Part shown: piece by piece, positions 49,463-53,821 of the stretch
How positions within the stretch are numbered: the stretch's first letter is position 1
Layout: each line of letters opens with the position of its first letter
Assembly (NCBI GenBank): GCA_019358945.1
Contig: JAHHIE010000012.1
Coordinates: 58,959-122,958 of the forward strand
Direction: 5' to 3'
Length of the DNA: 64,000 nt
From: Stenomitos rutilans HA7619-LM2
Lineage (GTDB): Bacteria > Cyanobacteriota > Cyanobacteriia > Leptolyngbyales > Leptolyngbyaceae
Position numbers and translations under genes: made by a program
Notes under the pieces: generated by a model
The model's database searches: none
What the model was told of the DNA's origin: nothing
What the model saw: the letters and a program-made list of their open reading frames with translations, nothing else

Positions 49463-49908
49463 GATCTTTACTTGAACTTTAGATAACTGGAATTTTAATG
49501 AGTTCTACTGAGGTGCTCTCTTTGCGGGTAAGAAAGATCGATGCATGGGAAGAACTTACGATACCGAAATCTACAGAAGATGCCAGATCGATGCTTAGGA
49601 TAAAGGTGATTGTCTCAGTATTTCAAGCAGACATTAGTGTTCGACTGTTTTTGATAGTCCTTCGCGTTGTGGAGCCAACTTCGCTTCGCTTCTTGTGAAT
49701 CCTTGTATAAATTCAGCCATTTATAGTATTTCTAACAGCTAAAACCACTAACTTCACCAAAACTTTCAATAAATGTTCATAATTATGTACGCATGTATAA
49801 AAAATAACATCTACCATAATATTATTCTGCTAGGAAAATTCCGGATTTTGCAAATTAGCATCCGGAGAGGTACTTGACGGTCTCTCGACCCTCTGCTAGC
49901 TTCAGATC

Positions 49909-49998
49909 ATGCACCTGTCTCATCCTCTTCTGGTTCCGCAAATGTCGAGCAGCGTTTTTCACTTCTATTTCTGGCGTTCGTCGGTTCACCTGGAGTGA
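49909..49998 (+). CDS. Aromatic-rich leader peptide 1 upstream of aroF
   Basis: A 29-codon ORF (ATG 49909, TGA 49996-49998) too short for ordinary gene calls. Near its end it has VFHFYFW, five aromatic residues in six codons. An inner ATG at 49942 would give 18 residues with the same aromatic run. Neither start has a clear ribosome binding site. The stop lies inside the left arm of the downstream helix, as expected for a ribosome-sensing attenuator. Confidence 0.6.
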   Translation: MHLSHPLLVPQMSSSVFHFYFWRSSVHLE

Positions 49999-50063
49999 CT
50001 ACCGTTCGAGACGAACGTGTCCAGGTGAACCGCAGAGTCAACTCTGCGGTTTTTTAGTTTTTT
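49975..50063 (+). promoter_or_regulatory. Attenuator 1: competing helix and intrinsic terminator
   Basis: GGTTCACCTGGA (49983-49994) pairs perfectly with TCCAGGTGAACC (50020-50031). The latter overlaps the 5' arm of a terminator, AACCGCAGAG/CTCTGCGGTT (50028-50037 with 50042-50051), followed by TTTTTTAGTTTTTT. A further exclusive pair is CGTTCGTC (49975-49982) with GACGAACG (50010-50017), against the local hairpin CGTTCG/CGAACG (50003-50017). A ribosome that finishes leader 1 would cover the left arm and let the terminator form. Confidence 0.8.
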
Positions 50064-50094
50064 ACGTTGTTGTTATCGGCTGTAGGAAAGAGCA

Positions 50095-50157
50095 ATGGCT
50101 GCGGTTATGAGTTGGTTTTACAGCTTTTACTTCTGGTTCGGAAAGTGTTCCGGGTAA
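50095..50157 (+). CDS. Aromatic-rich leader peptide 2 upstream of aroF
   Basis: A 20-codon ORF with an excellent ribosome binding site (AGGAAAGAG, ending three bases before the ATG at 50095) and a TAA at 50155-50157. The core WFYSFYFWF has eight aromatic residues in nine codons (2 Trp, 4 Phe, 2 Tyr), far beyond chance. Family knowledge: such leaders (trpL, pheL) sense charged tRNA by ribosome stalling. Here all three aromatic amino acids are sampled, matching the enzyme that feeds all three. Confidence 0.88.
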   Translation: MAAVMSWFYSFYFWFGKCSG

Positions 50158-50217
50158 AGTCTGTTGCGCCTTCGTTCGTACAGCCCGGAACCCAAAAGGT
50201 TTCGGGCTTTTTGTTTG
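50147..50217 (+). promoter_or_regulatory. Attenuator 2: antiterminator and intrinsic terminator
   Basis: The terminator stem AGCCCGGAACC (50182-50192) / GGTTTCGGGCT (50198-50208), with one G-U pair and a CAAAA loop, is followed by TTTTTG. Its 5' arm contains CCCGGAAC (50184-50191), the perfect complement of GTTCCGGG (50147-50154), which overlaps the last codons of leader 2. Ribosome stalled on the aromatic codons: the antiterminator can form. Ribosome at the TAA: its left half is hidden and the terminator forms. Confidence 0.88.
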
Positions 50218-50249
50218 CAATCACATCACCCAAATTAGGAGCAAATCTC

Positions 50250-51113
50250 ATGTTGGATGCCCGGTTAGTTATCAAGTCTCACCCCAGCCACCGCACCGTT
50301 GTACAGCTTTCTGAGCAAGTCGCGATCGGTAGCAATAACGTCATCGTTATCGGTGGTCCTTGTACAGTAGAAAGCGCTGACCAAATGGAGCAGGTTGCCA
50401 GCCAGCTTTCTGGTGCCCCCATTCATGCCCTAAGAGGCGGAGTATACAAACCCCGCACCTCTCCGTACTCGTTTCAGGGGATGGGTGTGGACGGGCTGCG
50501 CCTTCTAGCAGACGTACGATCGCGCTACGGCATGCCTGTGGTGACAGAAGTGATGTCGATCGCCCAGATTGAACCCGTTGCGGCCTACGCTGACATGCTC
50601 CAGATTGGCAGTCGCAATATGCAAAACTTCGAGTTGTTGAAGGCGTTGGGGCAAGCAGGTAAACCCGTGTTGCTGAAGCGAGGGCTGTCAGCCACCATTG
50701 AAGAATTTGTCATGGCAGCAGAGTATATCATGGCGCATGGCAATCCCGGTGTGGTGCTATGCGAGCGTGGCATTCGTAGCTTCGACACCTACACCCGCAA
50801 TGTGCTGGATTTAGGCGCAGTAGTAGCATTACGTCAATTGACCCATTTGCCCGTCATCGTAGATCCTAGCCACGCAGCGGGTAAGCGGGAACTGATCGCC
50901 GACCTCGCCAGAGCCGCCGTTGCCTGTGGAGCCGATGGCTTGATTGTTGAATGCCACCCTGATCCTGACCAATCTGTATCGGATGCTCGTCAGGCTCTTT
51001 CGTTGGAAGCAATGGTGGAACTAGTGCATAGCCTGGAACCGATCGCCCGTGCCGTTGGACGCACTTTAAGTAAGCCCAGCGTTGCAGAGCCAAAGCAACT
51101 GGTTGCTGTTTGA
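50250..51113 (+). CDS. aroF: 3-deoxy-7-phosphoheptulonate synthase (DAHP synthase), AroF/class I-beta
   Basis: A 287-residue enzyme joining phosphoenolpyruvate and erythrose 4-phosphate, the entry to the shikimate pathway. Core motifs: GGPCTVES, HALRGGVYKPRTSPYSFQGMG, QIGSRNMQNFELLKALG, PVLLKRGLSATIEEF, VDPSHAAGKRELI, VECHPDPDQSVSDARQAL. It is the short KDO8P/AroF-like type with no ACT or chorismate-mutase regulatory domain. The ATG at 50250 has AGGAG eight bases upstream. Control probably resides in the tandem attenuators just before it. Confidence 0.95.
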   Translation: MLDARLVIKSHPSHRTVVQLSEQVAIGSNNVIVIGGPCTVESADQMEQVASQLSGAPIHALRGGVYKPRTSPYSFQGMGVDGLRLLADVRSRYGMPVVTEVMSIAQIEPVAAYADMLQIGSRNMQNFELLKALGQAGKPVLLKRGLSATIEEFVMAAEYIMAHGNPGVVLCERGIRSFDTYTRNVLDLGAVVALRQLTHLPVIVDPSHAAGKRELIADLARAAVACGADGLIVECHPDPDQSVSDARQALSLEAMVELVHSLEPIARAVGRTLSKPSVAEPKQLVAV

Positions 51114-52631: not shown

Positions 52632-52726
52632 AACTGTACAGTAGGACGCAAAAGCTTCAAGCGTAACAACTAAGGTAGAACGTTCTCAACAGTTTCTATT
52701 CTTTTCCTAATCAGGTATGCTGTGTT

Positions 52727-53045
52727 CACGATTCGGCTCTGACGGGAAACCACCGCCAGAGAAAACAGGGAAAGTGTAGTGAAACTCTACCGCTGTCCCG
52801 CAACTGTGAGAGAAGTTAGAAGTTTTGCATGATGAGTTTTAAGTTACTAATTCAATAGGCCTTGCGCATTTGCTCCCAAACCCCCAATGCTGGGGGCTTT
52901 AATTGGCTCGGTTCCCCCAGCATTGGGGGCTAGGGGGCGAAAGATGACCGTTTTTGCGTAAGTCCTATTCAACTCAACACTCATCACTCGACACTCAACA
53001 CTCTTTAAGTCAGAACACCTGCCGTATCGTTCTACAACATCGTCT
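52727..53045 (+). promoter_or_regulatory. Cobalamin riboswitch interrupted by a MITE
   Basis: Upstream of cbiM are the conserved blocks of a cobalamin riboswitch: ACAGGGAAAGTGTAGTGAAACTCTACCGCTGTCCCGC-type core (from about 52765), then CAACTGTGA (52801-52809), and the B12 box AAGTCAGAACACCTGCC (53007-53023). Between the last two, normally a short variable arm, lies a complementary repeat pair (GATGAGTTTTAAGTTA with CAACTCAACACTCATC) capped by the 112-bp MITE. The downstream genes encode cobalt uptake, consistent with repression by B12. Confidence 0.9.
52856..52967. mobile_element. 112-bp MITE, copy 2, inside the cobalamin riboswitch
   Basis: Same length as and strongly similar to copy 1 (39089-39200), in opposite orientation: ends TAGGCCTTGCGCA and TGCGTAAGTCCTA (three mismatches between the two ends) with CCCCCAATGCTGGGGG-type inner hairpins. 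The 5-bp direct repeat TTCAA flanks it (52851-52855 and 52968-52972). Confidence 0.93.
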
Positions 53046-53062: not shown

Positions 53063-53821
53063 ATGAAGACACGCTACCGGAAATGGGTCAGCCTGGGATT
53101 AATGGCTGGCTTGAGTTGTTATTTGTTGCTTGGTTCTGCCAATCCTGCTTATGCAATGCATATTGCAGAAGGCTTTTTGCCTGTGCAGTGGGCAGCCTTT
53201 TGGTGGGCCGTATCGTTACCGTTCTTTCTCGTAGGCTTGCGATCACTCACCCGCATCACCCGGCAAAACCCTGAACTAAAATTGCTGTTGGCATTGGCAG
53301 GCGCGTTTACCTTTGTCCTTTCTGCTTTAAAGATTCCCTCTGTCACCGGAAGTTGCTCCCACCCTACAGGCACTGGGCTAGGCACCATTCTGTTTGGCCC
53401 CTTAACAATGACGGTGCTGGGTACTTTGGTGCTTGTGTTTCAGGCGGTTTTACTTGCGCATGGTGGTGTGACAACGTTGGGCGCAAATGTGTTTTCGATG
53501 GCGATCGTGGGGCCACTGGTTGCCTACGTAGTCTACAACACGGTTATGAAAACGGGTAAACAGAAGCTTGCCGTTTTCCTGGCTGCCACCCTGGAAGATC
53601 TGCTCACTTACATGACGACGGCTGTACAGCTTGCACTAGCGTTTCCAGCAGTGCAAGGTGGGTTTATCGCTTCGTTTATTAAATTTGCGGGCATTTTTGC
53701 GATTACTCAAGTCCCGTTAGCGATTAGTGAAGGACTGCTAACCGTATTGGTTTGGGGGTGGTTGCAGCAGTATGGCAAACAGGAGCTACAAACCCTCAAA
53801 CTTTTAGAGCAGGAGTCTTAA
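53063..53821 (+). CDS. cbiM: Cobalt ECF transporter substrate-binding component CbiM
   Basis: A 252-residue membrane protein with a signal peptide (about 1-31, ending NPAYA). Processing would expose the Met-His-Ile N-terminus (MHIAEGFLP) whose His coordinates Co2+/Ni2+. Typical blocks: [27 protein letters not shown] and [21 protein letters not shown]. It begins a cbiM-cbiN-cbiQ-cbiO unit under a cobalamin riboswitch, so cobalt rather than nickel is the likely substrate. GAGGTACAGG precedes the ATG. Confidence 0.96.

What the first reader, a model, noticed from the sequence alone, without database searches (positions are those of the whole stretch)
49909..50249. Tandem aromatic-sensing attenuators ahead of DAHP synthase in a cyanobacterium
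Two short ORFs with dense aromatic codons (VFHFYFW; WFYSFYFWF) lie in series before aroF. Each is followed by a perfect intrinsic terminator whose 5' arm can instead pair with a segment overlapping the leader's end (12-bp helix in unit 1, 8-bp helix GTTCCGGG/CCCGGAAC in unit 2). In both, a ribosome at the leader stop codon hides the left arm and favours termination, while a ribosome stalled on aromatic codons leaves it free and favours read-through. Ribosome-mediated attenuation is established for trp and phe operons of enterobacteria. I know of no described double version for aroF in cyanobacteria, but I cannot search. It would explain control of an enzyme that lacks an ACT domain.
Basis: partly seen in the sequence, partly recalled or inferred. 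Interest (0 to 1): 0.93.

Follow-up and report, generated by a model that had tools for sequence, protein, structure and literature searches.

The report
Tandem aromatic attenuators before cyanobacterial aroF
In a cyanobacterium and many relatives, two short reading frames packed with phenylalanine, tyrosine and tryptophan codons, each followed by its own terminator-like hairpin, lie in series before the predicted gene for the first enzyme of aromatic amino acid synthesis, and they likely let the gene be transcribed only when those amino acids run short.

Summary
Both units precede orthologous aroF genes in many Cyanobacteriia and in Obscuribacterales-type "Melainabacteria": a strict detector finds both in 94 of 117 upstream regions. 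Among 386 genomes of the phylum, 38 hold this aroF; models of units 1 and 2 hit strongly in 37 and 37 of them, and elsewhere once, at an aroF remnant. All four helices are conserved; covariation is clear for three and weaker for antiterminator 2. A promoter-like site precedes leader 1 in 92 of 103 regions, against 0 of 94 and 1 of 105 in the gaps behind. This aroF lacks the ferredoxin-like domain of the genome's other DAHP synthase. In the four genomes found with two leader-bearing copies, both leaders of one copy are tyrosine-rich (36 of 38 aromatic codons), both of the other phenylalanine/tryptophan-rich (42 of 43). Best reading: two ribosome-mediated attenuators in series. A tandem precedent with different signals exists (mgtCBR); ten paper searches found no cyanobacterial case. 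No expression data.

The parts
49874..49902 (+). predicted promoter TTGACG-N17-TAGCTT (TGC before the -10) of the leader transcript
   Evidence: read directly; TTGAC-N15..19-TANNNT upstream of leader 1 in 92 of 103 regions, 1.0 expected in mononucleotide shuffles
49957..49974 (+). aromatic codon run of leader 1 (F H F Y F W)
   Evidence: codon table over 85 distinct relatives
49982..49994 (+). left arm A1 of antiterminator 1 (overlaps the last leader codons)
50020..50032 (+). right arm B1 of antiterminator 1 (its 3' end overlaps the 5' arm of terminator 1)
50027..50055 (+). intrinsic terminator 1 with U tract
50095..50157 (+). leader ORF 2, MAAVMSWFYSFYFWFGKCSG
50113..50139 (+). aromatic codon run of leader 2 (W F Y S F Y F W F)
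50147..50155 (+). left arm A2 of antiterminator 2
50183..50191 (+). right arm B2 of antiterminator 2 (inside the 5' arm of terminator 2)
50182..50212 (+). intrinsic terminator 2 with U tract
50250..51113 (+). aroF: predicted type I DAHP synthase, 287 aa, no match to the ferredoxin-like domain PF18152
   Evidence: Pfam PF00793 and NCBIfam TIGR01361

Best explanation
The leader of aroF carries two attenuator-like units in series, each an aromatic-codon ORF whose last codons can pair with the 5' arm region of the terminator behind it, and they likely stop transcription twice over when charged tRNA-Phe, -Tyr and -Trp are plentiful. Predicted steps: RNA polymerase starts upstream of leader 1; a ribosome that reaches the stop codon covers arm A, so arm B stays free and the intrinsic terminator forms; a ribosome stalled on the F/Y/W codons leaves A free, A pairs with B before the 3' terminator arm is made, and polymerase reads on. 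The same choice would be made again at unit 2, so full aroF mRNA would need read-through at both, giving a steeper or wider response than one unit. Shown here: the ORFs, terminators, alternative helices and their conservation and covariation, promoter-like sites ahead of leader 1 and almost none in the gaps behind, the link to one kind of aroF, and the paired difference in codon content of both leaders between paralogues. Inferred: translation of the leaders, stalling, termination, and the amino acid response.
For: Conservation: both units in 94 of 117 upstream regions by a strict detector. Genome-wide: R1 strong in 37 and R2 strong in 37 of the 38 genomes with this aroF among 386 of the phylum; 36 have both, all 38 have at least one. 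Covariation: unit-1 antiterminator 88.3% of cells paired, 8 of 13 pairs changed on both sides, score 0.301 vs 0.169 in shuffles, at most 46.8% paired when slid; terminator 1 93.5%; terminator 2 90.7% on 53 rows, 88.1% on 60; unit-2 antiterminator 91.6% on 53 rows, 87.3% on 60. Folding before the 3' terminator arm is made: on average 0.92-0.93 of unit-1 A:B pairs form with a ribosome 9 to 14 codons before the stop at footprint 12; at the stop none can, because the arm is masked. Promoter-like sites ahead of leader 1 in 92 of 103 regions. Paralogues: Tyr 36 of 38 vs Phe/Trp 42 of 43 aromatic codons, in both leaders, in the four genomes found with two leader-bearing copies. No aromatic leader in 11 of 11 upstream stretches of more distant DAHP synthases (L121-L131). 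Chance scan.
Against: No transcript, ribosome or reporter data. In unit 1 the antiterminator and terminator overlap by only about 6 nt, and at equilibrium the terminator base stays closed with mean probability 0.49-0.61 for stalls at codons -10 to -13; it drops by more than 0.3 in 39 of 103 sequences. In unit 2 equilibrium favours the terminator: it weakens in 55 of 105 sequences, by more than 0.3 in 35, so the switch would have to be kinetic. Unit-2 antiterminator: the number of pairs changed on both sides is no better than in shuffles (2 vs mean 2.4 on 53 rows; 3 vs 3.0 on 60). The synonymous-change test favours the leader frame in unit 2 (0.51 vs 0.11, 0.27) but not in unit 1 (0.38 vs 0.15, 0.38). 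Stalls at the last aromatic codons (-7, -8; mostly Trp at -8 of unit 1) leave A partly covered, so Trp may be sensed weakly there. Most genomes of the phylum sample lack this aroF (348 of 386).
Confidence: 0.9

Rival explanations
1. The leaders act as arrest peptides: the nascent aromatic peptide stalls the ribosome by binding a free metabolite in the exit tunnel (as recalled for TnaC), rather than by waiting for charged tRNA.
For: Dense aromatic peptides and a fairly constant C-terminus (VHLE, SG) in many relatives.
Against: Order and identity of the aromatic residues drift (FYFYFW, YYYYY, FGFFFWF) while the density is kept, and the last residues vary as the pairing arm does (H/R at -3, L/R/P/Q at -2 of unit 1). 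Between paralogues both leaders differ together, Tyr-rich or Phe/Trp-rich, as codon sensing predicts.
Confidence: 0.05
2. Only one unit is a working attenuator; the other is a relic or serves for basal termination.
For: Some genomes keep only one: unit 1 alone in L118, unit 2 alone in L061 and L116. Unit 2 switches poorly at equilibrium in about half of the sequences.
Against: Both units keep paired helices and aromatic codons, and both differ together between paralogues.
Confidence: 0.12
3. A riboswitch or RNA-binding protein controls the terminators and the ORFs are incidental.
For: The A-B loop of unit 1 holds a small hairpin more stable than mononucleotide shuffles (median z -1.57).
Against: No Rfam match above a gathering score in this stretch; below it, only trpB (RF04312, E 0.3) and, on the other strand, STnc310 (E 0.6); neither reached E 1 in 17 relatives searched together, a stricter bar in bits. 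Left arms lie inside the ORF ends, and codon content differs by amino acid between paralogues in both leaders.
Confidence: 0.04

Closest known systems
Amino-acid operon attenuators of enterobacteria (trp, phe, his leaders; recalled)
   Same: short ORF with codons of the pathway's end products, terminator, competing antiterminator, masking of the left arm by a ribosome at the stop
   Different: two complete units in series before one gene; each mixes Phe, Tyr and Trp codons in most relatives; cyanobacteria; no 1:2 protector hairpin shown
Salmonella mgtCBR tandem attenuators (PMC3641672; abstract and passages read)
   Same: two short ORFs in series in one leader, one of them (mgtP) responding to proline-charged tRNA-Pro
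   Different: there the two sense different signals (ATP, proline), which the authors call a singular example; here both hold the same kind of codons, each has its own terminator, and the gene is biosynthetic
uORFC-13-1 motif before aroF in Acholeplasma (PMC8632094; passages read)
   Same: proposed Phe-codon uORF plus terminator ahead of aroF
   Different: one uORF described, 24 representatives, Acholeplasma and environmental sequences only; at least one Phe codon versus runs of F/Y/W
trpB motif RF04312 (PMC11109978; passages read)
   Same: hairpin followed by a terminator with a possible antiterminator; the window's unit 2 aligns over the whole model at 24.9 bits
   Different: far below the gathering score of 59; no genome of 146 in the phylum over the cut-off (two of one genus below it at 38.2 and 44.5 bits, not read); reported from Firmicutes and Fusobacteria

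Membership tests
ribosome-mediated transcription attenuators of amino-acid genes | leader ORF rich in codons of the regulated pathway's products | tested here: met
ribosome-mediated transcription attenuators of amino-acid genes | intrinsic terminator between leader and gene | tested here: met
   sequence and covariation; termination itself not tested
ribosome-mediated transcription attenuators of amino-acid genes | antiterminator that competes with the terminator and starts in the end of the leader ORF | tested here: met
   pairing conserved, (pairs changed on both sides not above shuffles for unit 2); competition modelled (weak at equilibrium for unit 2)
ribosome-mediated transcription attenuators of amino-acid genes | promoter upstream of the leader and none after the terminator | tested here: met
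   promoter-like pattern in 92 of 103 ahead of leader 1; 0 of 94 and 1 of 105 behind; no start-site data
ribosome-mediated transcription attenuators of amino-acid genes | protector/pause hairpin (1:2) | tested here: inconclusive
   no 1:2 hairpin was tested by covariation; a hairpin inside the A-B loop has median z -1.57 (unit 1) and -0.88 (unit 2)
ribosome-mediated transcription attenuators of amino-acid genes | leader is translated and read-through rises on limitation | not testable with these tools
   no expression data
tandem attenuators of the mgtCBR kind | two ORFs in series responding to different signals | tested here: not met
   judged from codons only: both leaders carry the same kind of codons and differ together between paralogues
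Rfam families (release 15) | match above a curated gathering score at 49909-50249 | tested here: not met
uORFC-13-1 (Acholeplasma aroF) | match to its consensus model | not tested
   compared by description only

The most novel reading that the evidence does not exclude
A double, in-series, codon-reading attenuator is the ancestral and specific control of a DAHP synthase without ferredoxin-like regulatory domain, kept from Cyanobacteriia to Obscuribacterales; when the gene is duplicated, both leaders of one copy become tyrosine sensors and both of the other phenylalanine/tryptophan sensors, so isozymes are divided by leader codons as E. coli's AroF, AroG and AroH (recalled) are by allostery. 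It would also mean that transcription and translation are tightly coupled in cyanobacteria.
Probability: 0.7. Interest if true: 0.88.

Novelty: new variant of a known kind. Interest (0 to 1): 0.82.

Why it matters
[quoted passage not shown] Here is a candidate with comparative support in two classes of the phylum. It gives a testable way in which cyanobacteria would control entry into the shikimate pathway, makes transcription-translation coupling there testable, and the Tyr-rich versus Phe/Trp-rich paralogues are a natural codon-swap experiment. It also matters for engineering aromatic products in cyanobacteria.

Tried and rejected
Rfam trpB motif (RF04312): a sub-threshold match to unit 2 (24.9 bits, cut-off 59); none at E 1 in 17 relatives searched together (there the bar in bits is higher, so a match as weak as the window's would not show); 0 of 146 phylum genomes over the cut-off, 2 below it; treated as chance. 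Same units before other genes: 16 of the weak R1/R2 places were fetched (13 of R2, 3 of R1). They end in terminator-like hairpins in most cases; short ORFs with 4 or 5 aromatic residues in nine lie near four of them (L188, L194, L197, L199), but there the ORF is the end of a longer gene (L194), or no co-oriented ORF of 90 aa or more follows within some 250 bases; the other weak hits were not read. Other F/Y/W runs in the own genome: two patterns gave 3 and 1 places, the one being leader 2 itself; the three were not followed. Independent origins of the Tyr-rich state: not claimed, one origin is not rejected (AU p 0.227 for the Tyr rows, 0.288 for the Phe/Trp rows). Synonymous-change test: not frame-specific for unit 1. 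Orientation error: loci of the genome search on the minus strand are not turned; 14 loci read in the wrong orientation at first were turned and re-read, L110 with a new offset. Rows left out: for the unit-2 alignment A2 I left out 7 of 59 dereplicated rows as divergent (L042, L046, L050, L052, L056, L057, L060) and added the window; a recount with them (A3, 60 rows) lowers the paired share from 91.6 to 87.3% (antiterminator) and from 90.7 to 88.1% (terminator), and terminator pairs changed on both sides then reach 7 against 5.7 in shuffles; model R2 was built without these rows. Four AroF rows with short loci and two duplicates were dropped from the tree.

Papers: ten searches in an open-access library found no cyanobacterial aroF attenuator; subscription papers are mostly not held, among them the 2010 survey by Lopatovskaya et al..

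Full report
Sequence. The stretch 49874-50250 reads, in order: promoter-like TTGACG-N17-TAGCTT (49874-49902), leader 1 (likely 49942-49998, MSSSVFHFYFWRSSVHLE), terminator 1 (50027-50052), leader 2 (50095-50157, MAAVMSWFYSFYFWFGKCSG), terminator 2 (50182-50208), aroF ATG at 50250. In each unit the end of the leader (A1 49982-49994; A2 50147-50155) is complementary to a stretch that overlaps or lies inside the 5' arm of the terminator (B1 50020-50032; B2 50183-50191). A scan of the window for this combination finds only these two places on both strands and none in 768,000 shuffled bases (criteria set after the fact).

Relatives. Eighty AroF loci (the best 80 of 208) came from genome contigs, 29 further from a phylum-wide protein search (L083-L111) and seven from region fetches (L112-L118); with the window, 117 upstream regions. 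Some repeat the same species from two collections. A strict detector (aromatic ORF, terminator, helix) calls both units in 94, unit 1 alone in 9, unit 2 alone in 11, neither in 3; a few of its single calls are themselves spurious (in L023 and L080 the second unit that it names is not the real one). Reading the 23 others: twelve have both leader ORFs and were missed by the thresholds (L023, L025, L030, L036, L037, L039, L041, L048, L060, L080, L090, L112); L021 is cut by the contig end inside unit 1; L020 keeps unit 2 but its upstream part is different; L077 has unit 2 and a degenerate unit 1; L061 and L116 show unit 2 only; L118, L064, L070, L075 and L082 show unit 1 only; L078 has neither and belongs to a clade of extra copies without leader.

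Genome-wide specificity. Covariance models R1 (56 sequences) and R2 (53 sequences) were built and run on 386 genomes of the phylum, with the tool's stricter filters. The aroF of the window's kind (match E at most 4.4e-107) is present in 38 of these 386, all of the window's class; the next-best genome lies at 3.0e-94. R1 hits 37 of the 38 with E at most 8.9e-14 and, outside them, only G030 (E 1.5e-8) plus three matches with E above 0.002. R2 hits 37 of the 38 with E at most 3.6e-9; all further R2 matches have E of 2.5e-5 or worse. G143 lacks unit 1 and G116 lacks unit 2. G030's hit runs into an aroF fragment, a decayed gene. Sixteen of the weak R1/R2 places were read and none looks like a second attenuated aromatic gene. 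Since the models contain sequences of some of these genomes, the sensitivity is partly by construction; the specificity is not. The Obscuribacterales-type relatives come from genome contigs alone; no genome of another class in the 386 had this aroF.

Helices. Unit-1 antiterminator (56 rows): 88.3% of 728 cells paired, 8 of 13 pairs changed on both sides (7 of 500 shuffles reach this), 58 such cells against 20.9 in shuffles, score 0.301 against 0.169; slid versions reach 46.8% at most. Unit-1 terminator: 93.5%, 5 of 10 pairs changed on both sides. Unit-2 antiterminator: 91.6% of 474 cells, 24 cells changed on both sides against 7.1, score 0.246 against 0.168, but only 2 pairs of 9 with such a change, no more than shuffles (53 rows). 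Unit-2 terminator: 90.7%, 7 of 11 pairs. Seven divergent rows had been left out of the unit-2 set; with them (60 rows) the antiterminator has 87.3% paired, score 0.236 against 0.180, 3 of 9 pairs changed on both sides (shuffles 3.0), and the terminator 88.1%, score 0.334 against 0.196, 7 of 11 pairs (shuffles 5.7). Slid versions reach 60.1% and 58.8% at most. Shuffles do not keep relatedness, so the slides and the pair types (UA, GC, AU and CG at one unit-1 pair) are the better guide.

Does the ribosome switch it? Equilibrium folding at 30 C with a 15-nt footprint: terminator base closed with median probability 1.00 with the ribosome at the stop in both units; with the ribosome stalled on an aromatic codon the median of medians is 0.76 in unit 1 (lower in 93 of 103, by more than 0.3 in 39, higher in 1) and 0.97 in unit 2 (lower in 55 of 105, by more than 0.3 in 35, higher in 0); untranslated RNA gives medians of 0.48 and 1.00. 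Before the 3' terminator arm exists, A:B forms almost fully when the stall is 9 to 14 codons before the stop (mean 0.92-0.93 of pairs in unit 1 and 0.89-0.93 in unit 2 at footprint 12), and cannot form with the ribosome at the stop because the arm is masked by construction. So the direction is right, the unit-1 overlap is short, and unit 2 would depend on kinetics.

Codons. Over 85 distinct unit-1 and 89 distinct unit-2 leaders, codons -12 to -7 (unit 1) and -13, -12, -10 to -7 (unit 2) are mostly F, Y or W. The synonymous share of single-base codon differences is highest in the leader frame for unit 2 (0.51 against 0.11 and 0.27) but tied with one other frame for unit 1 (0.38, 0.15, 0.38). 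Stronger evidence comes from paralogues. The 27 genomes behind 28 loci were searched for AroF; the upstream regions of the copies at 60% identity or more were read, except a piece at a contig end in G396; those of the more distant copies were not. Four genomes (G399, G405, G407, G409) hold two leader-bearing copies. In these four, copy a has 36 Tyr among 38 aromatic codons of its two leaders, copy b has 42 Phe or Trp among 43. A single origin of this split is not rejected (AU p 0.227, 0.288), so it counts as one or two events, but both leaders differ together. In G391, G394, G395 and G407 a further copy has no aromatic leader of this kind (L166/L177, L165/L176, L078/L161, L163/L175).

Promoter. 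TTGAC-N15..19-TANNNT occurs in the 130 nt ahead of the leader-1 core in 92 of 103 regions (1.0 expected), in 0 of 94 gaps between terminator 1 and unit 2 (0.7 expected), and in 1 of 105 gaps between terminator 2 and aroF (0.5 expected). In two unit-2-only loci a site lies further upstream.

Enzyme. The window protein matches DAHP_synth_1 (PF00793) and TIGR01361 and has no PF18152; the second DAHP synthase of the same genome has PF18152 at its N-terminus and no aromatic leader in the stretch read. The aligned AroF segments of six relatives and of G343 also match PF00793 without PF18152 (segments, not whole frames), and with terminator 2 a median of 44 nt before aroF there is no room for such a domain upstream. 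Eleven of 11 upstream stretches of more distant DAHP synthases (L121-L131) show no aromatic leader. That the missing domain means no feedback control is inference from known relatives (recalled).

Literature. Tandem attenuators with two ORFs are known from Salmonella mgtCBR, responding to ATP and proline (PMC3641672, abstract and passages). A Phe-codon uORF ahead of aroF was proposed for Acholeplasma (PMC8632094, passages). [quoted passage not shown] My ten searches found nothing later for cyanobacteria; the library holds open-access papers only.

Verdict. Two ribosome-mediated attenuators in series, a new variant of a known kind, with strong comparative support and no direct experiment.

Noticed in passing
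window 52717-53040: Cobalamin riboswitch (RF00174, 39.1 bits) directly upstream of a CbiM cobalt uptake gene (53063-53821).
   Followed up: partly
L171 (G382:C1:3950300-3958200): In one genome of the class the leader-type aroF is interrupted inside its coding region by an element of about 6 kb with a phage-type integrase gene (PF00589); both leader units lie upstream. It resembles the interruption elements of heterocyst formers (recalled).
   Followed up: partly
L170 (G030:C48:71500-74600): A decayed remnant: unit 1 runs into a short aroF fragment without the terminator's U tract.
   Followed up: partly
L078/L161, L175, L176, L177: A clade (SH-aLRT 100) of extra DAHP synthase copies in Obscuribacterales-type genomes, 62-65% identical to the window's, without an aromatic leader.
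   Followed up: partly
L120/L184 (G343): A distant DAHP synthase (55% identity) has a single, different aromatic leader (MMKRFYYFSFYPNALRC) with a terminator-like hairpin behind it; possibly an independent or very diverged one-unit version.
   Followed up: no
L064, L073: Two loci titled Actinobacteria and Chloroflexi MAGs carry the same unit 1 (L073 both units) and group with Obscuribacterales-type sequences in the trees; mislabelled bins or transfer, not resolved.
   Followed up: no
L020, 1-394: Unit 2 is kept, but the sequence upstream, where unit 1 would lie, is unlike that of the relatives.
   Followed up: no
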